Below, piece after piece: positions 14,065-53,699 of a stretch of DNA of 64,000 nt (position 1 is the stretch's first letter; each line of letters opens with the position of its first letter). Source of the stretch: an uncultured Prevotellaceae bacterium (lineage in GTDB: Bacteria; Bacteroidota; Bacteroidia; Bacteroidales; Bacteroidaceae); contig CACYYG010000007.1 in the NCBI GenBank assembly GCA_902778535.1, positions 1 through 64,000 on the forward strand, read 5' to 3'. Both the position numbers and the translations under genes were made by a program. The notes beneath the pieces were generated by a model, which was not told the DNA's origin, did no database searches, and saw nothing but the letters and a program-made list of their open reading frames with translations.

Positions 14065-15147
14065 ATGAAGGTAGTTATTGCCATCGATTCGTTCAAGGGA
14101 TGCCTGACCTCGGTTGAGGCTAATCAGGCAGCAGCTGAGGGTATTTGGAGCGTTTGCCCCGATGCTGAGACTGTGCAGGTGCCTGTCAGCGATGGGGGCG
14201 AGGGATTTCTCGATGCCTTCCATGCCGCCGTTGGTGGCGAACTGGTGAAGCTGGTAGTGAGCGACCCGCTGATGAGGCCAGTCACTGCGAGGTATCTGCT
14301 GTACGACAATGCAGCGGTGATAGAAATGGCTCAGGCCAGCGGACTGACACTGTTGGCACCCGAGGAGCGTAATCCGATGGTGACGACGAGCTATGGCACA
14401 GGGCAGCTGGTGGCCGATGCTGTCAGAAAGGGAGTCACGCACATCATCGTGGGCCTTGGTGGCAGCGCTACCAGCGATGCAGGTATGGGTATGCTCAGAG
14501 CGCTCATTGATGCTTTCGCTACAAGAGGCAATGGCCTTTGGGACGACATTGAGGCATTGAAGAATGTACGTTTTACGATAGCCTCCGATGTGAAGAACCC
14601 GCTTTGTGGAGAAAACGGAGCGGCAGCCGTCTTTGCGCCGCAAAAAGGAGCGACGCCCCATATGGTTGGGCTGTTAGACGCAAGGGCTCACAAGTTTGCG
14701 GAGCTTTCTGCCCGGCATTTCGGCTATGACCGTTCAGAGACGGCGGGTGCAGGTGCTGCCGGTGGGCTGGGCTATGCTTTCCTGCAATACCTCGATGCAG
14801 AATGTAAGCCGGGCGTTCAGCTGTTGCTCGACACCATCCGATTCAGGGAAATCGTCAGAGGTGCCGACCTGATTATCACTGGCGAAGGCGCTGCTGACCG
14901 TCAGACACTGATGGGCAAGTTGCCGATGGGCATTTTGCAGCAGTCGGGTGGGGTGCCTGTCTGCTTGATTGCCGGTAGAATTAGCGACCGCGCACAACTG
15001 CTCGAAGCCGGCTTCGCCCATGTTGATGAAGTAAGTCCGCGCGACATCGCCCTTGAAGAAGCCATGCGCAAAGAGGTGGCTCTGCGTCATGTCAGCGAAA
15101 CGGTAAGAAAACTGTGTAGAGTAATAACTTGGGAAGATAGCCTATGA
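14065..15147 (+). CDS. Glycerate kinase
   Basis: Type I (GarK/GlxK family) glycerate kinase, 360 aa, phosphorylating D-glycerate to 2- or 3-phosphoglycerate. The start MKVVIAIDSFKGCLTS is the family N-terminus, which fixes the ATG at 14065 although the frame is open further upstream. Other family blocks are GGEGFLDA, VGLGGSATSDAG (near residues 130-140), GAAGGLGYAFL and ITGEGAADRQT. It is 49 bp downstream of the M64 gene on the same strand. A large inverted repeat follows the stop codon. Function in glycerate salvage is known for the family; the neighbours add no pathway context. Confidence 0.9.
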   Translation: MKVVIAIDSFKGCLTSVEANQAAAEGIWSVCPDAETVQVPVSDGGEGFLDAFHAAVGGELVKLVVSDPLMRPVTARYLLYDNAAVIEMAQASGLTLLAPEERNPMVTTSYGTGQLVADAVRKGVTHIIVGLGGSATSDAGMGMLRALIDAFATRGNGLWDDIEALKNVRFTIASDVKNPLCGENGAAAVFAPQKGATPHMVGLLDARAHKFAELSARHFGYDRSETAGAGAAGGLGYAFLQYLDAECKPGVQLLLDTIRFREIVRGADLIITGEGAADRQTLMGKLPMGILQQSGGVPVCLIAGRISDRAQLLEAGFAHVDEVSPRDIALEEAMRKEVALRHVSETVRKLCRVITWEDSL

Positions 15148-15162
15148 TGATAAAATTTCAGA

Positions 15163-15271
15163 CCCCACCCCTGCCCCTCCCCTTGAGGGGAGGGGAGTGC
15201 CTCACGGAGTTCCTTCCGCGGATGACGGCGCAGCCACTCCCCTCCCCTCAAGGGGAGGGGCAGGGGTGGGG
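15163..15271. repeat. Perfect 37-bp inverted repeat with nested palindromes
   Basis: The arms 15163-15199 and 15235-15271 are exact reverse complements, separated by a 35-bp loop. Each arm contains a nested near-palindrome, CCCCTCCCCT then TG then AGGGGAGGGG. It fills most of the gap between glycerate kinase and the alpha/beta hydrolase. It looks like a dispersed REP/MITE-like element. It lacks a T tract, so it is not a classical terminator. Confidence 0.75.
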
Positions 15272-15327
15272 TATGTAACTTCATCATGCCAGCTTATCAT
15301 TTAATGATTACTAAATAAGAAAGATTC

Positions 15328-16584: not shown

Positions 16585-16886
16585 TTTCTTAAAAAGCTGA
16601 GCCACAGTCATACCGCAATGAATGATGAGGATATGGCGATATGGTTTTATTTTCGTACACGCCGTGTGTACTAAAAATACACACGGCGTGTACTTTTAGT
16701 ACACACGGTGTGTACGAAATGTGTACTTGACGTTCTTGAAACTGTACGTCTCTGGTGGAACAAATTCCCGTTTTGCGGTTTCATTGCCGATAATCCGTGT
16801 TTTTTTTGAAGAAATAATGAAATTCGTGTAGTTTTTTGAAGTTGTGCTGCGTCTAATGGGCAAAAAGATTCAAAAACAGAACAACA
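16585..16886. other. Gene-free interval upstream of the ECF sigma gene
   Basis: 302 bp without a supported gene. The left third holds the palindrome array described separately. The rest is A/T-rich; no TTG/TAnnTTTG promoter with good spacing was found ahead of the sigma factor gene, which would be consistent with autoregulated ECF-type promoters that do not match the housekeeping consensus. Confidence 0.5.
16655..16715. repeat. Triple 17-bp palindrome array A, 22-bp period
   Basis: Units are GTACACGCCGTGTGTAC (16655-16671), ATACACACGGCGTGTAC (16677-16693) and GTACACACGGTGTGTAC (16699-16715), separated by 5-bp spacers taaaa and tttta. Unit 2 is the reverse complement of unit 1 except for its first base. 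The 3' flank gaaatgtgtacttgac resembles the flank of the array at 40939. See also the array at 53569. Confidence 0.85.
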
Positions 16887-30246: not shown

Positions 30247-31710
30247 ATGCTACAGAAAATGATGAAACGAGTGATGATGATAATGGCCGTGGCGGCGCTG
30301 ACGATGACTGCCGAGGCCAAGGTGCGCCTGCCGCACATGATAGGCCACAATATGGTGATTCAGCAGCAGACGGAGGTGAGGCTCTGGGGATGGGACAAGC
30401 CGAAGCAGAAGGTGACGGTGACAACCTCGTGGAGCACAGAGCAGGCCACGGCCACTGCCGACAAGGATGGCCGCTGGCTGGTGAAGGTGAAGACGCCGAA
30501 AGCCAGTTTTGAGCCGCAGACAATTACCTTCGACGACGGCGAGGCGACAACCGTCAGCAACGTGCTCGTGGGCGAGGTGTGGGTGTGCGCAGGCCAGTCG
30601 AACATGGAGATGCCCGTCAAGGGCTTCGGCAACTGTCCTGTGGAAGACCACAACGAGGTGATTCTCGATGCCGTGAACCACCCGGGCGTGCGCTCGCTGA
30701 AAATTCCCAGTACGATGCGCATGGAGCCGCAGGACGACGCACAATGCCAGTGGCAGGTGTGCTCGCCGCAGACCGTAGGCGAGTTTTCGGCAACAGGCTA
30801 TTTCTTCGCCCGACTGCTCAGCCAGTCGCTCAACATTCCAGTAGGCATCATCGAGGCCAACAAGGGCGGCTCGCGCGTGGAGAGCTGGCTGACAAAGGAA
30901 AACCTGCAGAAACATACCTCTGAGCCGACGGACACGATGGGCATTGTGAACTTCAAGCCTGAATACGACTACCAGCGGGCGCTGCTGTGGGGTAACGGCA
31001 CGTTCAACCCGATACTGAACTACACGGTGAAGGGCATCCTCTTCTATCAGGGCTGCTCCAACGTGGGCGACCCCGGCAATCAGTATTCCGAGCGCCTCAA
31101 ACTGCTGGTGGAGCAGTGGCGCGGGCAGTTCGGCCTGGGCGAGATTCCCTTCTACTTCGTCGAGATAGCACCCTATCATTACGACAACGTGAACGGCGAC
31201 TGGGGCGCCCGACTGCGCGAGCAGCAGTATCGTGCACAGCAAATCATCCCCAACAGCTCACTGGTGAGCACCAACGACCTTGTCTATCCCTACGAGACCA
31301 CGCAGATTCACCCTGCACAGAAGCGGCAGGTGGGCGAGCGACTGGCTTATACGGCCCTGAACCGCGACTACGGCTTTGAGCAGGTGTGGTATAAGAGTTC
31401 GTCGTATAAGGATATGACCGTCAAGGACGGCAAGGTCTACATCCACCTGCAGGACGAGTATGGCGCCATGAGCCGCTTCGAGAGCATCGAGGGCTTTGAG
31501 GTGGCGGGCGACGACCGCGTGTTCCATCCTGCCCATGCCCAGCACTTCTGGCAGCCGGGCGGCGGCTATTGGGACGAGGCCATCGTGGTGAGCTCGCCTG
31601 ATGTAGAGAAGCCTGTGGCCGTGCGCTACTGCTTCAAGAACTTCCAGATAGGCAATGTGAAGAACGGTGCTGGCCTGCCGCTCTTCCCCTTCCGCACAGA
31701 CAACTGGTAA
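30247..31710 (+). CDS. Sialate O-acetylesterase-like enzyme, secreted
   Basis: SGNH-fold acetylesterase of the sialate O-acetylesterase (SASA) family, 487 aa. The signal peptide spans about residues 1-24 (ends TAEA). A beta-sandwich N-terminal part (25-110) leads to the block I motif AGQSNMEMP with nucleophile Ser118. The catalytic His is in TTQIHPAQK (His355), and ANKGGSRVESW is typical of the family. In plant-feeding Prevotella, such enzymes also deacetylate xylan or pectin, so the sialic-acid name is not proof of substrate. It is followed by a 21-bp tandem repeat and the acyl-CoA synthetase gene. Confidence 0.85.
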   Translation: MLQKMMKRVMMIMAVAALTMTAEAKVRLPHMIGHNMVIQQQTEVRLWGWDKPKQKVTVTTSWSTEQATATADKDGRWLVKVKTPKASFEPQTITFDDGEATTVSNVLVGEVWVCAGQSNMEMPVKGFGNCPVEDHNEVILDAVNHPGVRSLKIPSTMRMEPQDDAQCQWQVCSPQTVGEFSATGYFFARLLSQSLNIPVGIIEANKGGSRVESWLTKENLQKHTSEPTDTMGIVNFKPEYDYQRALLWGNGTFNPILNYTVKGILFYQGCSNVGDPGNQYSERLKLLVEQWRGQFGLGEIPFYFVEIAPYHYDNVNGDWGARLREQQYRAQQIIPNSSLVSTNDLVYPYETTQIHPAQKRQVGERLAYTALNRDYGFEQVWYKSSSYKDMTVKDGKVYIHLQDEYGAMSRFESIEGFEVAGDDRVFHPAHAQHFWQPGGGYWDEAIVVSSPDVEKPVAVRYCFKNFQIGNVKNGAGLPLFPFRTDNW

Positions 31711-31788
31711 CCAATAAACAATAACCGTTAACCAATAAACAATAACCGTTAACCAATAAACAATAACCGTTAACCAATAACCGTTAAC
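31711..31788 (+). repeat. 21-bp tandem repeat, 3.7 copies, in a leader
   Basis: Three identical 21-bp units (31711-31731, 31732-31752, 31753-31773) are followed by the shortened form CCAATAACCGTTAAC (31774-31788), immediately before the ATG at 31791. The same 15-mer stands directly before the ATG of the next gene (33862-33876). Units contain stop codons in frames I checked, and the array is non-coding. Confidence 0.9.
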
Positions 31789-31790
31789 CT

Positions 31791-33848
31791 ATGATTAACC
31801 GACAACTACTCGAACCTGAGAGCATCGTCGTCATTGGCGGCTCTAATAATGTGCATAAGCCGGGCGGCGCCGTGGTGCGCAACCTGATGAGCGGCGGCTA
31901 CAGCGGCGTGCTGCGCGTGGTGAATCCCAAGGAAGACGAGGTGCAGGGCATCAAGGCCTTCCACGATGCCCGCGAGCTGCCGCCCACTGATTTGGCCATC
32001 CTCGTGGTGGCTGCCCGATTCTGTCCCGACTACGTAGAGCTGCTGGCAAAAGAGAAGAATGTTCGCGCGTTCATTATTATATCTGCCGGCTTCAGCGAGG
32101 AAACACCCGAGGGTGCCCAGCTGGAGCAGCGCATCCTCGACACGTGCGAGCAGTATGGCTGTGCACTCATTGGTCCCAACTGCATCGGCCTGCTCACGCG
32201 CTGGCATCACTCCGTGTTCACCAAACCCATTCCGCAGCTCAATCCGCATGGGGTCGACTTCATCAGCGGGTCGGGCGCTACGGCCGTCTTCATCCTGGAG
32301 AGTGCCGTCACGAAGGGCTTGCAGTTCAACAGCGTGTGGAGCGTGGGCAACGGCAAGCAGATAGGCATTGAGAGCGTGCTGGAATATATGGACGAGCACT
32401 TCGACGCAGAATCTGACTCAATGGTGAAGCTGCTATATATCGAGAACATCGCCGACCCCGACAAGCTGCTCTTCCACGCCACCAGCCTCATCCGCAAGGG
32501 CTGTCGCATCGCTGCCATCAAGGCCGGCTCGTCGGCAGCAGGCAGTCGTGCCGCCAGCAGTCATACGGGGGCCATCGCTTCATCCGACAGCGCCGTCGAG
32601 GCACTCTTCCGCAAGGCTGGCATCGTGCGTTGCTACGGCAGGGAAGAGCTGACGACGGTTGGCTGTATCTTCACGCTGCCACGTTTCACAGGTAAGAACT
32701 TCGCCATCGTCACCCACGCCGGAGGTCCTGGCGTGATGCTGACCGACGCGCTGTCGAAGGGTGGCATGTCGGTGCCGCCGTTCCCGCAGGATATGGCCGA
32801 GGAGCTGAAGTCGAAGCTCCTGCCCGGCAGCAGCGTGGCCAACCCCATCGACATCTTGGCAACGGGCGGGGCAGAGCATCTGGGCATCGCCATCGACTAC
32901 TGCGAGAAGGCCGAGGACATCGATGCCATCATGGTCATCTTCGGCACACCCGGCTTGGTGAAGATTTTCGAGGTGTACGACGTGCTCGACAAGAAGATTC
33001 GCGAGTGCAGCAAGCCCATCTTCCCCGTCCTGCCCAGCGTGAGCACGGCAGGCCCCGAGGTGCAGGAGTTCCTGAAGCGCGGCCATGTGAACTTCAGCGA
33101 TGAGGTGACGCTGGGCACCGCCCTCACGCAGATTATGAAGACGCCCGCACCTGCCGAACAGAATGTGGTAATCAACGGGGTGGACGTGCCTCAAATACGC
33201 CGTATTATCGACGGCATCAGCGAGAATGGCTACATCGCTCCAGATCTTGTGCACGAGCTGTTGAAAAGCGCAGGCATCCCAACTGTTCCTGAGTTCGTCA
33301 GCGACAAGAAGGAGGAAGTGCTGGCCTTTGCCGAAAAGACGGGCTTCCCCGTGGTGGCGAAGGTGGTCGGCCCTGTACATAAGAGCGATGTGGGCGGCGT
33401 GGCGCTGAACATCCGCTCGAAGGAGGTGCTTAGTGCTGAGTTCGACCGCATGATGCAGATTCCCGACGCAACGGCCGTGATGGTGCAGAAGATGATTCGC
33501 GGAACCGAGCTGTTCATTGGCGCAAAGTATGAGCCGAGGTTCGGACATGTCGTGCTATGCGGTCTTGGCGGCATCTTCGTCGAGGTGCTGAAGGACGTAT
33601 CGTCAGGTCTTGCACCATTGAGTTACGAGGAGGCCTATTCGATGATCCGCTCGCTGCGCGGCTACAAGATTCTGAAGGGCACGCGCGGACAGAAGGGCAT
33701 CAACGAGCGCAAGTATGCCGAGATCATCGTGCGCCTCTCGACCCTGCTGCGGTTTGCAACCGAAATCAAGGAGATGGACATCAATCCGCTGCTGGCCGAC
33801 GAACAGGACGTCATCGCCGTCGATGCCCGCATACTCGTGGAGAAATAA
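31791..33848 (+). CDS. ADP-forming acetate/acyl-CoA ligase, fused alpha and beta subunits
   Basis: Acyl-CoA synthetase (ADP-forming) that couples acyl-CoA breakdown to ATP formation, 685 aa, cytoplasmic. Domain order: CoA-binding (about 1-130), two succinyl-CoA-ligase-like domains (about 140-450) and a C-terminal ATP-grasp domain (about 465-685). The phosphohistidine is expected in SSHTGAIASSDS at His258. ATP-grasp residues are seen in FPVVAKVVGPVHKSDVGGV. It would support substrate-level phosphorylation from acetyl-CoA or branched acyl-CoA in an anaerobe. The substrate is not readable. It is followed by a nucleoside kinase gene 28 bp downstream. Confidence 0.9.
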   Translation: MINRQLLEPESIVVIGGSNNVHKPGGAVVRNLMSGGYSGVLRVVNPKEDEVQGIKAFHDARELPPTDLAILVVAARFCPDYVELLAKEKNVRAFIIISAGFSEETPEGAQLEQRILDTCEQYGCALIGPNCIGLLTRWHHSVFTKPIPQLNPHGVDFISGSGATAVFILESAVTKGLQFNSVWSVGNGKQIGIESVLEYMDEHFDAESDSMVKLLYIENIADPDKLLFHATSLIRKGCRIAAIKAGSSAAGSRAASSHTGAIASSDSAVEALFRKAGIVRCYGREELTTVGCIFTLPRFTGKNFAIVTHAGGPGVMLTDALSKGGMSVPPFPQDMAEELKSKLLPGSSVANPIDILATGGAEHLGIAIDYCEKAEDIDAIMVIFGTPGLVKIFEVYDVLDKKIRECSKPIFPVLPSVSTAGPEVQEFLKRGHVNFSDEVTLGTALTQIMKTPAPAEQNVVINGVDVPQIRRIIDGISENGYIAPDLVHELLKSAGIPTVPEFVSDKKEEVLAFAEKTGFPVVAKVVGPVHKSDVGGVALNIRSKEVLSAEFDRMMQIPDATAVMVQKMIRGTELFIGAKYEPRFGHVVLCGLGGIFVEVLKDVSSGLAPLSYEEAYSMIRSLRGYKILKGTRGQKGINERKYAEIIVRLSTLLRFATEIKEMDINPLLADEQDVIAVDARILVEK

Positions 33849-37384: not shown

Positions 37385-39001
37385 CTACAAGAGCACTTCC
37401 AGCAAACGGGGTTCTTTGACTTCGGCATCAGCAAGCCAGAGGATTTCTTTTTGCAGCTGCTCCATGTTGGTGGCCGCTTGGCGATTGACGCCACATTGCC
37501 TGCAGATGCCCTCAGCGGTGGTGTGGTGTGCTCCGGCCACAAGAGCGGGATGGGCAGCACTCTGGCTGAGTCCTGGCAGATGGTCGAAGATGGCACCGTG
37601 GCCGTTGTTCAGCAGCAGGATGCGCAGGTTCAGGCTTGGCAGGAGCGTGTTCCACAGCGCATTCTGGTCGTAGAAGAAACTGAGGTCGCCGATGACGCAG
37701 AAAACAAGAGACGGGAGAACGGCAGCAGCAAATCCTGCGGCAGTGCTGAGAGAACCTTCAATGCCGTTGGTGCCGCGATTGCACCACACAGAATGGCCCT
37801 TTGCGTAGCGGTTGGCCAGGCGTATGGCGGTGCTGTTGGCGTAGTGGACGTTTAGGGGAACGAGAAGTGACGCAATTTGTCGTTCTAACAGGCGCACGGC
37901 TCCCTCCTCACTAAAGGTCAGCGGCGCATTGTCTAACTGCTGTCGTGCATCACTCAGCAGATGGAGCCATTGGCGGCGATAGTGAGCAGCGAGAGGTGAG
38001 AGGTGAGCGGCGATAGACGAGTATTTCGAGTTGAGCGCCTGCAGGACAGCCTCTGCATCGCCCACGACGATGCCGCGCAGGTTTTGGAATGTGTCTTCTG
38101 CCTCGCCCGTCAGGCTGATGCGCCATGTGCGGGCGTCTCTGGCCTCACGCAAAAAGTGTTTCAGCCGTTTGCTCACGATGGCGTCGCCCACGTAGAGGAT
38201 GAAGTCGGGCGTGAGGTGGGAGAGGGGAGGCGTGAGCACTTCTTCGAAGGGACTGACGCTGGTAAAAGGCGCCAGTGCTTCGTGTAGTACGATAATGTGG
38301 CTGAAGAGGTGGTCGATGCCCTCGTAGTGGAAACGGCGAGAGCTGAGCTGGCCGAAGACGATGAGCGGCCGCTCAGCGCTGAGCAGGTCGTCGAGAAGCT
38401 GCTGCGGCAGACAGCTGTAGTCGGTGGCAGGCGCATAGCGGCGGATGACACGTTCCTCGGGCAGCTTTTCAGTGGTGAACTCAAAGAGCGGCTCGCTGAT
38501 GGGCACGTTGATGTGCACGCAGGGATGAGTGTCGTCGGTGGCCTCGATGAGTGCTTCGTTCACCAAGCGGTTGCAGTGCCAGTTTAGAGGAGAGAGCTCG
38601 GGCAGGGAAACCGTCTTCTTCACCCAAGGCTCCAGCGCCCCAGGTTGCTGGAGTGTCTGTCCGTCGAGCTGGTCGATCCACTCAGTCGGCCGGTCGGCAG
38701 AAATGACAATGAGTGACTGGTGCTGATAGTGGGCCTCAGCAACGGCGGGTGCCAGATTGAGCAGTGCCGTGCCGCTGGTTACGCAAACCACTACGGGCTC
38801 GTCGGTGGCCTGTGCGATGCCGAGGGCGAAGAAGCCTGCTGAGCGCTCGTCGGTGACGGGATAGCACGTGATGTCGGGGCACTCGTTGAGGTTGTGCACG
38901 ATGGGCACGTTCCTACTGCCCGGGCACACCACAGCATGTTTTATGCCGTGGGCCACCAGCAGGCTGGTAAGGATGTTTACCGAGGTTTTATTGCTGTACA
39001 T
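37385..39001 (-). CDS. menD: SEPHCHC synthase (menaquinone biosynthesis)
   Basis: ThDP-dependent 2-succinyl-5-enolpyruvyl-6-hydroxy-3-cyclohexene-1-carboxylate synthase, second step of classical menaquinone synthesis, 538 aa. The N-terminal block CPGSRNVPIV and cofactor-activating Glu52 in VTDERSAG are typical, as is the GDLSFFYDQNALW segment of the ThDP domain (about residues 445-457). Two in-frame segments encoded by TCACCTC-like repeats occur: HLSPLAAH (near residue 338) and LTPPLSHLTP (near residue 260). It is separated from the other men genes by an M6 protease and a GH109-like gene. Confidence 0.93.
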   Translation of the reverse strand: MYSNKTSVNILTSLLVAHGIKHAVVCPGSRNVPIVHNLNECPDITCYPVTDERSAGFFALGIAQATDEPVVVCVTSGTALLNLAPAVAEAHYQHQSLIVISADRPTEWIDQLDGQTLQQPGALEPWVKKTVSLPELSPLNWHCNRLVNEALIEATDDTHPCVHINVPISEPLFEFTTEKLPEERVIRRYAPATDYSCLPQQLLDDLLSAERPLIVFGQLSSRRFHYEGIDHLFSHIIVLHEALAPFTSVSPFEEVLTPPLSHLTPDFILYVGDAIVSKRLKHFLREARDARTWRISLTGEAEDTFQNLRGIVVGDAEAVLQALNSKYSSIAAHLSPLAAHYRRQWLHLLSDARQQLDNAPLTFSEEGAVRLLERQIASLLVPLNVHYANSTAIRLANRYAKGHSVWCNRGTNGIEGSLSTAAGFAAAVLPSLVFCVIGDLSFFYDQNALWNTLLPSLNLRILLLNNGHGAIFDHLPGLSQSAAHPALVAGAHHTTAEGICRQCGVNRQAATNMEQLQKEILWLADAEVKEPRLLEVLL

Positions 39002-39043
39002 GCCGTTCTTAGTAATCGTTAAATAATAAACTGGTAATTTTCG

Positions 39044-39148
39044 GGGGTACGAAGGTACGGAGGTACGGAGGTGCGAGGTTTGACCTTACGCTGAAAGCAG
39101 TCGTGCAAGCTATTCTCGTACCTCCGTACCCCCGTACCTCCGTACCTC
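39044..39148. repeat. 34-bp inverted repeat built of 9-bp units
   Basis: Arms 39044-39077 and 39115-39148 match at 30 of 34 positions as an inverted repeat. Each arm is itself a series of GGTACGGAG-like 9-bp units. The 37-bp loop has no T tract. It lies between the M6 protease stop and the menD start on the minus strand. Confidence 0.75.
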
Positions 39149-39171
39149 AGAATCGTCCGATAGCATTTCAC

Positions 39172-40742: not shown

Positions 40743-40938
40743 GTGAATTTTAATGAAGCAAGAGCAGAAATAAATACTTTTCTGTTCTTTTATTTCTCGT
40801 CTCGCCCAAAAACGTGTTTTCGATACGAAATAGTGAATGTGTATTCCAACAGCAAAATGATTATCCGTAATGATGCAAACCAACGGACGATTGAATAAAA
40901 AAAGACCGTCGGTTTTACAAACGTCAACTACACGTTTC

Positions 40939-40999
40939 GTACACACCGTGTGTACTTTTAATACACACCGTGTGTATTTTTAGTACACACGGTGTGTAC
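40939..40999. repeat. Triple 17-bp palindrome array B, 22-bp period
   Basis: Units are GTACACACCGTGTGTAC (40939-40955), ATACACACCGTGTGTAT (40961-40977) and GTACACACGGTGTGTAC (40983-40999), with both spacers tttta. Units 1 and 3 are exact reverse complements, and the array is bracketed by cgtttc and gaaacg. The 3' flank gaaacgcatacttgac resembles that of array A. It lies 28 bp beyond the stop of the GH109-like gene. Confidence 0.9.
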
Positions 41000-41027
41000 G
41001 AAACGCATACTTGACCTTTTTTGAGAG

Positions 41028-42080
41028 TCAGCAGACGTTGGCGTAAAAGTCGGGGAAGTTCACGGGAGCAAAGCCGTGCGCTATGCTTTCGCGCGAAAGC
41101 GGTATGGCAGCACACCAGGTGGCCATGTCATAGATGCTGATGGAGAGCGGTGAGCCGTTGCGCAGGCTGTCGATAAGATGTCGGTTCATGGCTTGTGTCA
41201 TGGCATCGTGCGAGGCGCGGCCGGTGTCGTGGAGCTCGATGCGGCCTCGGGTGCCTATGAAGGTCAGTTGCCGTTCATAGGGCTGCTCGGTAAGCACATC
41301 ATGTTTTAGCAGGATGGTACGCCCGCGTGCGGTGCGAATGAGGGTAGTGGTGTGGTCGCCGTTCTTGAAGTCGGTAGCAGCCTCACCCATGCGATCTTCG
41401 TAAGTCTGCGGGCCGGTGATGGCAGCGGAGTCCATGCTTACGAGTGTCAGCAGGCGGTCGTCAACGCCGATGCCAAGTGCCTGGCAGATGGGCCCCAGCT
41501 CGTGGGTGGGGTAGAGGTCGCCACGGTGCTGCCGATTGATGTCTAAGCGCCAGGACGACCAGCGGTTGCCGAGATGGTGGTAGTAGCAGCCTTCGGCGTG
41601 CACTACCTCGCCGATGTCGCCACGACGAATCTTCTTGACGGCCTCAACGACCTGATGTTCGAAGCAGGCGTTCTCGAGCATGAAGCACTGTCGGCCCGTT
41701 TGCCTGGCAGTGGCGATGAGCTGGCGGATGTCGTCCATCGTCATTGCGGCCGGAACCTCAACGGCAGCATTTTTGCCGTTGCGCATCGCCTCAAGCGCAA
41801 TGGGCGTGTGGGAGGCCCAGTCGCTGCAAATGTACACGAGATCCACATCCTCCTTCCGACATGCCGTCTTATACGCCTCCTTACCCGATAGGCACAGCAC
41901 CTCTGCGCTGTCTGCCGCGGCCGTCACTATGGCCTTCGCCTCTTGGATGTTGGCTTCGGAGAGATCACACAGTACCGTCACCTCGACGCCTTCCAAAGGC
42001 AGCATCAGGCGCAAAGCCTTGCGTCCCCGGTCGCCTAAACCGATGAATGCTATGCGGATTGTATGAAGAAATGCTGTCAT
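41028..42080 (-). CDS. Gfo/Idh/MocA-type oxidoreductase, GH109-like
   Basis: NAD-dependent oxidoreductase-fold protein, 350 aa. The Rossmann N-terminus is FIGLGDRGR. The following segments VEVPAAMTMDDI, MLENACFEH, YPTHELGPICQALGI and LVSMDS match GH109 alpha-N-acetylgalactosaminidases, which use NAD in a redox hydrolysis mechanism. It is shorter than typical GH109 enzymes (about 440 aa) and has no signal peptide, so it may be a cytoplasmic relative with another substrate. It starts 18 bp after menF on the same strand and probably shares its transcript, although nothing links it to menaquinone. Confidence 0.8.
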   Translation of the reverse strand: MTAFLHTIRIAFIGLGDRGRKALRLMLPLEGVEVTVLCDLSEANIQEAKAIVTAAADSAEVLCLSGKEAYKTACRKEDVDLVYICSDWASHTPIALEAMRNGKNAAVEVPAAMTMDDIRQLIATARQTGRQCFMLENACFEHQVVEAVKKIRRGDIGEVVHAEGCYYHHLGNRWSSWRLDINRQHRGDLYPTHELGPICQALGIGVDDRLLTLVSMDSAAITGPQTYEDRMGEAATDFKNGDHTTTLIRTARGRTILLKHDVLTEQPYERQLTFIGTRGRIELHDTGRASHDAMTQAMNRHLIDSLRNGSPLSISIYDMATWCAAIPLSRESIAHGFAPVNFPDFYANVC

Positions 42081-42098
42081 GCAATAGATGATTCCACG

Positions 42099-43142
42099 TT
42101 ATGGCTTGATAAGACGGCGCATGGTTTCCATCTTTGCCTCGGTTTCCTGCCATTCCTGTTGCTCGTTGCTCTCGCGCAGCAGGCCGCCGCCGGCATAGAG
42201 GTGGCAGGCGCTATCGGTGATGTGCATACAGCGCAGCGATACGTAGAGGTGGGTGGAGCATTGAAGATGGAAGGGACCCATAAAGCCGCTGTAGTAGTGG
42301 CGTGGAGCATTTTCATGGCTGATGATGAAACGCTGGGCCTCAGCCTTGGGCAGACCGCAGACGGCTGGGGTGGGGTGGAGCGCTTCAAGGAGCTCGCCTA
42401 CGCGTGTACAATATTTATTATTGAGGGTAAAGGTGAAGTCGCTGCGCAGGTGCACAAGGTGTGCGGCACGCACGGTGCGCGGCCCTTCTTCGTGGACATC
42501 GTCTGAGAACCGGCGCAGCACGTCGGCAAGATAGGAGGCTACGTAGCGCTGTTCCTGAATGTTCTTAGCCGACCAGCGCAGTCGCTGCCCCTCGTCGTCG
42601 GCTCTGTCGCTGCGCAAGCGCATGGTGCCCGCCAGGGCAATAGTGCGCCAGCGGTTGTCGGGAAGGTGTTCTAACAGAATTTCGGGCGAGGCTGTGAGCC
42701 ACATGCCGCTCTGCGGTGTGCTGACCAGAGCTACGAACATGCGGGGATAGAGGCGGCAGGCTGTCTGAAAAAGCATCATCGGCGTGGCCTTGCCGTCGTA
42801 GCCGACGGTGGCGCAACGTGCCAGCACCAGCTTTTGAAACTGTCGGTCAAGGAGGGCTTTGTGGAAAGTGGCGAAATCGGAAGAATAGGAGCTGCGCGAG
42901 AGGGGGAGTGAGGGGTGAGTGGAAACAGGCGTGCTCTGCGGCTGAGGTATTCTTTCATCTTTCACCTCTTGCTTCTCACCTCTGATCAGAACCACCGGCT
43001 CCTCTTCCGATGCCATGAAGGGAGCAAGCAGAAAACCCTGCTCGTCGCCAAGTTCGGCGAGCGACGGCACGACAACGGCTTCGCCCTCAATCATCGCATA
43101 GCTGTCGGCATGGGGCAGGCGGAAGATGGCGAAGCTGTTCAT
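42099..43142 (-). CDS. menF: Isochorismate synthase
   Basis: Chorismate-to-isochorismate isomerase, first committed step to menaquinone, 347 aa. The chorismate-binding half has KLVLARC, HPTPAVCGLP, YYSGFMGP and LYAGGGLL, the standard family blocks. The ATG at 43142 gives a 4-bp overlap with the thioesterase gene; the frame is open far upstream but only as antisense/alternate sequence of that gene. The N-terminal third contains a low-complexity linker with STHPSLPLSRSS and GEKQEVKDE coded by TCACCTC-type microrepeats. An entC-like siderophore role is unlikely, as no such genes are near and menD is 3 kb away. Confidence 0.9.
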   Translation of the reverse strand: MNSFAIFRLPHADSYAMIEGEAVVVPSLAELGDEQGFLLAPFMASEEEPVVLIRGEKQEVKDERIPQPQSTPVSTHPSLPLSRSSYSSDFATFHKALLDRQFQKLVLARCATVGYDGKATPMMLFQTACRLYPRMFVALVSTPQSGMWLTASPEILLEHLPDNRWRTIALAGTMRLRSDRADDEGQRLRWSAKNIQEQRYVASYLADVLRRFSDDVHEEGPRTVRAAHLVHLRSDFTFTLNNKYCTRVGELLEALHPTPAVCGLPKAEAQRFIISHENAPRHYYSGFMGPFHLQCSTHLYVSLRCMHITDSACHLYAGGGLLRESNEQQEWQETEAKMETMRRLIKP

Positions 43143-52876: not shown

Positions 52877-53548
52877 ATGAAGATAAAAGTTTGCGGCATG
52901 CGCGACGGCAAGAACATCCGCGAAGTGGAGGCTCTTGGCGTTGACTATATTGGCATGATTTTCTGGAGCGGCTCGCCGCGCAATGTTACGATGGTGCCCA
53001 CACACGCAGGCATCATTCCCGACAGGGCCAGTCTCTCACCTCTCACCTCTCACCACTCACCACTAAGAGTTGGCGTCTTCGTCGACGAGATGCCGCAAAG
53101 CATTATTACGCGCGTGGTGAATTATCAGCTCGATGTCGTGCAAATGCATGGTCACGAATCGCCAACTGTCATCCGCAACCTGCGCGCTACCCTCGACCCA
53201 GACTTCCGTCCGGGCATCCAGTTCTGGAAAGCTGTCAGCATTGCAAGCACCGACGATCTGAACGCCTGCGAGCAGTATTTCAACTGCGTCGATGCCTTCG
53301 TCTTCGACACTCGCTGTGACAGCGTGGGCGGCAGTGGGCGGCAGTTCGACTGGCAGCTGCTGGAAGCCTATCACGGCCCTGTGCCCTTCCTGCTGAGCGG
53401 CGGCATTGGCCCCGACGATGCTGCCCGAGTAAAGGCTTTCCATCACCCTCAGTGCATTGGCATCGACCTCAACTCCCGTTTTGAGACTGCACCCGCTGTG
53501 AAAGACGTTGACCTGCTGCGCAGTTTTTTGCAGCAGGTTGGCGCATAA
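52877..53548 (+). CDS. trpF: Phosphoribosylanthranilate isomerase
   Basis: Tryptophan-biosynthesis enzyme (Amadori isomerase), 223 aa, cytoplasmic. Family motifs KVCGMRD, VGVFVDE, VQMHGHE, FDTRC and LLSGGIGPDDA are intact, including the catalytic Cys6 and the Asp in FDTR. Residues about 51-63 (ASLSPLTSHHSPL) are an extra low-complexity insertion coded by TCACCTC repeats, located in a surface loop between beta-alpha elements. It starts 4 bp after the esterase gene and stands apart from other trp genes, so it is either a moved gene or an added copy. Confidence 0.9.
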   Translation: MKIKVCGMRDGKNIREVEALGVDYIGMIFWSGSPRNVTMVPTHAGIIPDRASLSPLTSHHSPLRVGVFVDEMPQSIITRVVNYQLDVVQMHGHESPTVIRNLRATLDPDFRPGIQFWKAVSIASTDDLNACEQYFNCVDAFVFDTRCDSVGGSGRQFDWQLLEAYHGPVPFLLSGGIGPDDAARVKAFHHPQCIGIDLNSRFETAPAVKDVDLLRSFLQQVGA

Positions 53549-53568
53549 AGCGGGATTGTGCTAAAACA

Positions 53569-53629
53569 GTAACCACGTGGGTTACTGTCTGTAACCACCG
53601 TGGTTACTGTCAGTAACCCACGTGGTTAC
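53569..53629. repeat. Triple 17-bp palindrome array C, 22-bp period
   Basis: Units are GTAACCACGTGGGTTAC (53569-53585), GTAACCACCGTGGTTAC (53591-53607) and GTAACCCACGTGGTTAC (53613-53629), with spacers tgtct and tgtca. Units 1 and 3 are exact reverse complements, and unit 2 is a palindrome. The array is bracketed by aaaaca and tgtttt. The geometry equals arrays A and B, but the sequence differs (GTAACC in place of GTACAC). Confidence 0.9.
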
Positions 53630-53699
53630 TGTTTTGTTACAATGGCCTACTGACGTAAACGTTTTCGCGAAGTGCCGTTTTTTTTGTCCCTTATATTTT

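What the first reader, a model, noticed from the sequence alone, without database searches (positions are those of the whole stretch)
40939..40999. Three-unit palindrome array with exact 22-bp period and symmetric ends
Three 17-bp palindromes lie at exactly 22-bp spacing (two helical turns), with identical spacers, unit 3 the exact reverse complement of unit 1, and outer flanks cgtttc/gaaacg also inverted. Two other loci in this 64-kb window have the same 61-bp layout. The geometry fits a phased set of protein-binding sites or a folded RNA better than a simple terminator, because there is no T tract and the units are evenly phased.
Basis: seen in the sequence. Interest (0 to 1): 0.85.

Follow-up and report, generated by a model that had tools for sequence, protein, structure and literature searches.

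The report
Dispersed palindrome arrays, 22-bp lattice
The three evenly spaced palindromes are one of at least 40 copies of a repeat scattered through this bacterium's genome, and relatives carry arrays with the same 22-base spacing but quite different letters, which likely means that the spacing is a docking lattice for paired DNA-binding proteins still to be found.

Summary
In detail: 40939-40999 holds three 17-bp palindromes at exactly 22 bp, and two more arrays in the window share the layout (16655-16715, same family; 53569-53629, unrelated sequence). No array scored as high at 22/22 spacing in 200 window shuffles. It is not unique: 40 places hold family 1 and 41 hold family 2 among the candidates scored, and a third family exists. 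In 1.46 Mb from 80 relatives, 18 of 22 arrays have period exactly 22.0 with mostly unrelated units; one shuffle of each locus gave none. In Xylanibacter brevis two unrelated palindrome families share one 22-bp lattice. Array C is missing from the orthologous site of two close relatives. In family 1 half-sites are nearly invariant while gaps vary, mostly without compensatory pairing. I read these as mobile arrays of operator-like sites, likely bound as double-stranded DNA by an unidentified dimeric protein. Terminator and RNA readings fit worse. A divergent REP-type transposase fused to a DprA-like domain occurs in these genomes, but its adjacency to arrays is not enriched. New variant of dispersed palindromic repeats (REP/BIME/MITE-like).

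The parts
40939..40955 (.). Array A unit 1, 17-bp dyad (half-sites GTACAC / GTGTAC)
40956..40960 (.). Array A spacer 1 (TTTTA)
40961..40977 (.). Array A unit 2, 17-bp dyad (ATACAC / GTGTAT)
40978..40982 (.). Array A spacer 2 (TTTTA)
40983..40999 (.). Array A unit 3, exact reverse complement of unit 1
40919..40938 (+). Left family-1 flank (AAACGTCAACTACACGTTTC), similar in other copies; holds an extra degenerate half-site 11 bp before unit 1
41000..41019 (+). Right family-1 flank; starts with GAAACG, inverted match to CGTTTC
16655..16715 (-). Array B, second copy of family 1 in the window (spacers TAAAA and TTTTA)
53569..53629 (.). Array C, family 2 (GTAACC n5 GGTTAC), same 22-bp geometry, unrelated sequence
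53549..53655 (.). Approximate extent of the DNA at array C missing from orthologous sites of two close relatives; starts just after the stop codon of the upstream gene (ends not exact)

Best explanation
The feature is one copy of a dispersed repeat whose core is a lattice of 22-bp dyad sites, likely a mobile, operator-like array that would be bound as double-stranded DNA by a dimeric, sequence-specific protein. Shown here: mostly three units in this genome, three to twelve elsewhere; half-sites in alternating orientation, on average one per 11 bp; about 40 or more places for each of two families; several unrelated sequence families per genome on the same 22-bp step; absence of array C from the orthologous site of two close relatives; in family 1, near-invariant half-sites and variable gaps. 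Inferred: that two helical turns per dimer puts the bound dimers on one DNA face so that they can bind cooperatively; that each family has its own fast-changing protein; that copies spread by a transposition-like process; and that placement is mainly limited by selection against landing in promoters or in folded protein regions. The binding protein and the enzyme that spreads the arrays are not identified.
For: Copies: 40 places for family 1 (40 of 42 candidates scored), 41 for family 2 (40 of 77 candidates scored), a third family in a 400-kb sample. Period: 18 of 22 array rows at exactly 22.0 in relatives, 0 in one shuffle of each locus (the 18 include three orthologous repeats, in L138/L181 and L135/L160, and two overlapping rows in L140, so about 14 distinct arrays); Tandem Repeats Finder, which knows nothing of the geometry, puts 17 of 30 (relatives) and 13 of 18 (own) palindromic-unit repeats at 22; 210 of 219 steps at 22 in chained arrays. 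Phase shared by unrelated families: composite arrays in X. brevis. Half-site constraint: 18 mismatches in 720 half-site bases, 0 in the inner 600, against 82 of 500 gap bases, Fisher p 3e-18, in 20 of 21 family-1 copies (L018, out of register, dropped). Double-strand rather than hairpin: family-1 pair 2 is AT 55, AC 13, GT 7, GC 0; X. brevis A pair 5 is AT 20, TT 17, AA 17, TA 11. Mobility: empty orthologous sites. Placement: 0 of 56 own arrays inside called genes; medians 76 bp from stop codons and 222 bp from starts.
Against: No binding protein was found and no binding was measured. Some pairs do covary (family 1 pair 8: 55 paired, 46.5 expected; X. brevis A pair 8: 42 against 27.5). In the 10 coding arrays G.T exceeds A.C, 15 to 5. 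In 309 kb of other same-genus genomes three of four arrays were at 21, not 22, and the three palindromic repeats there were all at 21. The phase test over 97 arrays rests on X. brevis-type loci alone (L138, L181, L281). Copies were found by similarity, which could favour intact half-sites. Families change so fast between species that a vital binding function is unlikely. Ten of 104 array sites lie in coding sequence, where binding is an unlikely role.
Confidence: 0.5

Rival explanations
1. REP/BIME-like elements: palindromes recognised as single-stranded hairpins and spread by a Y1 (HUH) REP-associated transposase, here a divergent Y1-DprA fusion family.
For: Two Y1-DprA genes in X. brevis start about 330 and 565 bp from composite arrays and one in G062 about 400 bp from another 22-bp array. 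The own genome has three such genes and at least three array families. The catalytic HUH and Tyr-x-x-x-Asn-Pro residues are invariant in 21 aligned proteins and the Y1 fold is predicted.
Against: Outside the three loci that led to the family, 3 of 26 gene loci had any array nearby (only one of them at 22) against 23 of 334 background windows, p 0.42 (one of 30 loci, L415, a second piece of a gene already counted, was left out); 2 of 20 loci had one within 1 kb. Array-bearing genomes are not clearly richer in the gene: 10 of 14 against 21 of 36 same-genus genomes. Arm pairs are mostly not compensated. PF01797 (Y1_Tnp) has no match in the own genome.
Confidence: 0.2
2. Neutral minisatellites: replication slippage and hairpin template switching create tandem palindromes, and the 22-bp step is a mutational property.
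For: Periods 21 and 22 stand out among the longer tandem repeats of these genomes, not only palindromic ones (relatives: 21 and 32 arrays, against 4 at 20 and 3 at 23). A tolerant protein linker collects many unrelated repeats. Family-1 spacers flip as blocks: the inner triplet is AAA in 14 and TTT in 26 of 40, none intermediate.
Against: Half-sites are far more conserved than gaps in family 1. Unrelated families keep phase in one lattice in X. brevis. Copies lie at dozens of places, one of them absent from two relatives.
Confidence: 0.2
3. RNA-level element: bidirectional terminator, mRNA stabiliser or structured RNA.
For: Strong predicted fold of array A as single-stranded DNA (z -8.4); terminator-like matches over units 1 and 2; own arrays are mildly enriched between convergent genes, 14 of 53 against 16 of 126, p 0.03; G.T over A.C in coding arrays, 15 to 5.
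Against: Divergent placement equals background (17 of 53 against 38 of 126); no wobble bias at tandem sites; no Rfam match at the arrays at gathering scores.
Confidence: 0.07
4. MITE moved by a DDE transposase; the array is incidental cargo between terminal inverted repeats.
For: Several family-1 copies have left and right flanks that end, by eye, in inverted matches to GGCGGTATCATTGCGGATAA.
Against: Many of the 21 copies printed lack one or both ends; ungapped conservation fades about 70 bp from the array centre and few masked flanks match each other. The end motif at up to 2 mismatches gave 59 matches against 13 in the control, many of them possibly coding. No parent transposon was identified.
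Confidence: 0.15

Closest known systems
REP elements and BIMEs with REP-associated tyrosine transposases (PMC6006769 and PMC3733652, passages read; PMC2817692, start of abstract in listings only)
   Same: Many short palindromes in mostly intergenic places, joined in mosaic arrays, families differing between genomes; REPs inside coding regions are also reported (PMC3733652)
   Different: A 22-bp lattice shared by unrelated families, little covariation in the arms, and no enrichment of a Y1 gene beside the arrays; GTAG or CGTC tags were not tested
BrickBuilt MITE of Porphyromonas gingivalis (PMC4596501: outline, sections 5 and 8, and section 7 part 1 read)
   Same: Bacteroidales; tandem 23-nt repeats inside a dispersed intergenic element with leader, tail and short inverted ends; species-restricted
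   Different: 23-nt direct repeats in 1 to 22.8 copies; 12-bp IS5-like ends; one sequence family
Rickettsia palindromic elements (recalled; only a search listing seen)
   Same: Palindromic repeats that also land in coding genes (recalled)
   Different: Single longer hairpin, no 22-bp array, unrelated bacteria (recalled)
Triple 17-bp operators of lambda-type phage repressors (recalled)
   Same: Three dyad sites of about 17 bp a little over two helical turns apart, cooperative dimers (recalled)
   Different: One regulatory locus per phage, not a dispersed repeat

Membership tests
REP/RAYT system | Y1 transposase gene flanked by the cognate palindrome | tested here: inconclusive
   Three adjacent cases but no enrichment among the remaining 26 loci; none of the own three genes is directly flanked, one has family-2 arrays 2.6 kb and about 3 kb away on its two sides
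REP/RAYT system | Y1_Tnp (PF01797) match in the genome | tested here: not met
   0 matches in the own genome at E <= 0.001; only the divergent long family, 3 places
REP/RAYT system | Palindrome kept as a base-paired hairpin | tested here: inconclusive
   No compensation at family-1 pair 2 and X. brevis A pair 5; some at the outermost pair
REP (GTAG/CGTC type) | Conserved GTAG or CGTC tag beside the palindrome | not tested
   No call made for it
MITE | Terminal inverted repeats with target duplication | tested here: inconclusive
   TIR-like ends on some family-1 copies; the array C empty site is too diverged to call a duplication
MITE | Insertion at a site empty in relatives | tested here: met
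   Array C absent at the orthologous site of G060 and G061
BrickBuilt | 23-nt tandem direct repeat with GAGACC-type ends | tested here: not met
   Step is 22; the flanks show, by eye, no such ends
Intrinsic terminator | Placed downstream of genes, rare between divergent genes | tested here: not met
   17 of 53 own arrays between divergent genes
Known structured RNA | Match to an Rfam family | tested here: not met
   Only a tRNA in the window at gathering scores

The most novel reading that the evidence does not exclude
Rumen-type Prevotellaceae carry a genome-wide positional code: arrays of alternating half-sites, on average one per 11 bp and two helical turns per dimer, whose spacing is fixed across species while the letters change with each family, read by a rapidly diversifying family of dimeric DNA-binding proteins that assemble into short phased filaments at dozens of intergenic sites. 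Composite arrays, often with five units of one family beside or between units of another, suggest that two such proteins co-assemble on one lattice.
Probability: 0.3. Interest if true: 0.87.

Novelty: new variant of a known kind. Interest (0 to 1): 0.7.

Why it matters
Dispersed palindromes in bacteria are usually grouped by sequence. Here the constant is a distance, 22 bp, kept in unrelated sequences, in different species and even between two families in one array. That makes a physical reader of DNA geometry testable in culturable strains, and gives a sequence-free way to find the arrays. If a protein is found, it would be a new class of multi-site chromosome binder with changing specificity; if not, the arrays show that a mutational process can keep a two-turn period.

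Tried and rejected
Phage or IS origin: no Y1_Tnp in the own genome; exact family 1 and family 2 patterns gave 0 matches in viral contigs. Known RNA family: none at the arrays. Cognate gene by recurrence beside arrays: 42 own loci and 180 neighbour proteins of 104 array sites gave only small clusters of two to four, among them the Y1-DprA pair in X. brevis; the wider test of that pair was negative. A structure-based covariance model was too tied to its six training sequences: it missed the window arrays and served only to find more places in six genomes, none in G067. MAFFT put diverse arrays out of register, so counts use ungapped lattice coordinates. Family-2 pair counts mix unit and spacer dyads and were not used; the family-2 and X. 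brevis sets were selected by half-site patterns, so only positions left free by the pattern are used. Literature: among the papers listed by searches I saw no report of 22-bp-period palindrome arrays in Prevotella or Bacteroidetes; lists are cut at 10 to 25 papers and subscription papers are not held.

Failed scripts: (errors). In one search one relative's sequence was in the wrong orientation; one search repeats it correctly. The structure comparison is a second look at Foldseek matches only.

Full report
What is there. Positions 40939-40999 hold three 17-bp odd palindromes with centres 22 bp apart, identical TTTTA spacers, unit 3 the reverse complement of unit 1 and inverted flanks CGTTTC/GAAACG. 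The array lies 28 bp after the stop codon of a minus-strand oxidoreductase-like gene (41028-42080; the name is my reading of its sequence) and about 380 bp upstream of the next minus-strand gene. Two more arrays in the window share the layout: 16655-16715, same family, and 53569-53629, an unrelated sequence. A scan for three dyads found no array with a score of 20 or more at 22/22 spacing in 200 dinucleotide shuffles of the window (5 of 200 had one at some other period), against three real ones.

It is a dispersed repeat. In the own genome (3.9 Mb, 55 contigs) a search with array A scored 40 of 42 candidates and lists 40 distinct places; a search with array C scored 40 of 77 candidates and lists 41 places. 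A 400-kb sample of the genome gave 14 arrays, 11 at period 22.0, and showed a third family, GAAACACTTTGTTTC. A family-1 query matched 2 of 59 other genomes, over 22-24 bp only; a family-2 query matched 3 of 199 other genomes of the genus.

The geometry is shared, the letters mostly are not. In 80 loci of relatives (1.46 Mb, fetched through menD) I found 22 array rows with similar units; 18 had period exactly 22.0 over an allowed range of 16-34, and one shuffle of each locus gave none. The 18 include three orthologous repeats (L138/L181 twice, L135/L160) and two overlapping rows in L140, so about 14 distinct arrays; some unit sequences recur between genomes, such as GTCCGACGCCTTCGGAC in G062 and G063. 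Tandem Repeats Finder agrees without any knowledge of dyads: 17 of 30 palindromic-unit repeats in relatives and 13 of 18 in the own sample have period 22. Results against a universal rule: 272 kb from 20 genomes of other families of the order had two arrays, none at 22, and 309 kb from other same-genus genomes had four, three at 21 and one at 22.

Two families on one lattice. In Xylanibacter brevis ATCC 19188 (genome of locus L181) arrays reach 12 units. A block of TTCTAGACTCTAGAA-type units sits beside a block of CAATAGTGCCACTATTG-type units, often with a weaker second block on the far side, and the 22-bp phase runs through the joints; 7 of the 10 composite arrays printed have exactly five units of the first kind, the others four, six and eight. 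Over the chained arrays of the own sample and four other genomes, 210 of 219 steps are 22 (the chain rule favours 22 when extending, seeds may be 20-24, and the stretches of the four genomes were chosen around model hits). In a phase test around 97 arrays, 16 of 46 unrelated dyads with whole-base centres fall on the 22-bp lattice (32 more had half-base centres), but all 16 come from X. brevis-type loci.

It moves. The orthologous site of array C in two close relatives (G060, G061, the genomes of L105 and L110) has both flanks but lacks about 100 bp that contain the array, directly after the upstream stop codon. Array A lies in a 3-kb segment (39.0-42.1 kb) that is absent between menD and menF in L105 and L110. 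The exact ends and any target duplication could not be read.

Where it sits. Of 56 own arrays of families 1-3 none was inside a called gene, and 53 had a gene on both sides: 22 tandem, 14 convergent, 17 divergent. Against own gaps of 120 bp or more (72, 16 and 38 of 126) convergent sites are mildly enriched (p 0.03) and divergent ones are not depleted (p 0.86). Over 104 array sites of all sampled genomes the median distance is 76 bp to stop codons and 222 bp to start codons, and 10 sites are coding. A count with a slightly different filter gave 10 coding among 97 arrays; seven of these (two in nearly identical strains) lie in menF of relatives, in a linker of the protein that varies freely and in other species holds other repeats. 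Gene calls are from my own simple caller.

Double-stranded DNA, not RNA. At tandem sites, where the transcript strand is known, G.T and A.C mismatches are equal, 32 and 32; in the 10 coding arrays they are 15 and 5, which goes the other way. In 20 of 21 similarity-found copies of family 1 that stay in register, half-site bases differ from consensus in 18 of 720 cases, all at the outermost base, and in 0 of the inner 600; gap bases differ in 82 of 500 (p 3e-18). Where arm positions vary, they mostly do so without their partner: pair 2 of family 1 is AT 55, AC 13, GT 7, GC 0 and pair 5 of the X. brevis A unit is AT 20, TT 17, AA 17, TA 11. Outermost pairs do covary to a degree. This is the pattern expected when each half-site is read by a protein, rather than when a stem must pair. 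It is an inference; no binding was measured.

A sign of folding all the same. The five-base spacers of family 1 come mostly as TAAAA or TTTTA: in 40 spacers the inner triplet is AAA 14 times, TTT 26 times and never mixed. Such block flips are described for hairpin loops elsewhere (PMC3123225, passages) and suggest that the dyads sometimes extrude or serve as template switches. Between two nearly identical loci (L138, L181) one unit differs at three positions, its centre among them.

Verdict. A real, unusual and widespread feature: dispersed arrays whose spacing, more than sequence, is conserved. The best mechanism is a phased set of dyad sites for an unidentified dimeric DNA-binding protein, spread by an unidentified transposition-like process. 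I found no description of it in the searches listed under Tried and rejected.

Noticed in passing
L299:9051-10121, L296:11882-13165, L336:1315-2325; own genome G000:C17:48227, C10:2855, C5:77319: A family of Y1 (HUH) transposase-like proteins fused to a DprA-like domain, at 11 places (12 matches) in X. brevis and with a match in 30 of 60 genomes searched. Far below the cut-off of the known REP transposase model.
   Followed up: partly
menF linker, e.g. L137:9138-9202, L147:9079-9143, L164:9127-9191; window menF 42099-43142: The linker of isochorismate synthase is hypervariable and collects unrelated short repeats, including 22-bp palindrome arrays in an open frame, in different species.
   Followed up: partly
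window 53031-53064 and 37982-38018: A GGTGAGA-type 7-bp minisatellite; the first has dozens of weak matches in two close relatives; 7 is also the commonest tandem period of 5-50 in the relatives' loci.
   Followed up: no
window 31702-31799: Tandem 21-bp repeat (AACCGTTAACCAATAAACAAT) in a short gap between two plus-strand genes.
   Followed up: no
window 15136-15298: Inverted repeat with 67-nt arms rich in CCCCTCCCC between two plus-strand genes.
   Followed up: no
window 39040-39157; also L013 and L014 flanks: Inverted GGTACGGAGGTACG-type repeats; similar sequence also lies beside two family-1 arrays.
   Followed up: no
L138/L181:13500-13655: One unit of an array differs at three bases, centre included, between otherwise almost identical loci, hinting at unit conversion or flipping.
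   Followed up: no
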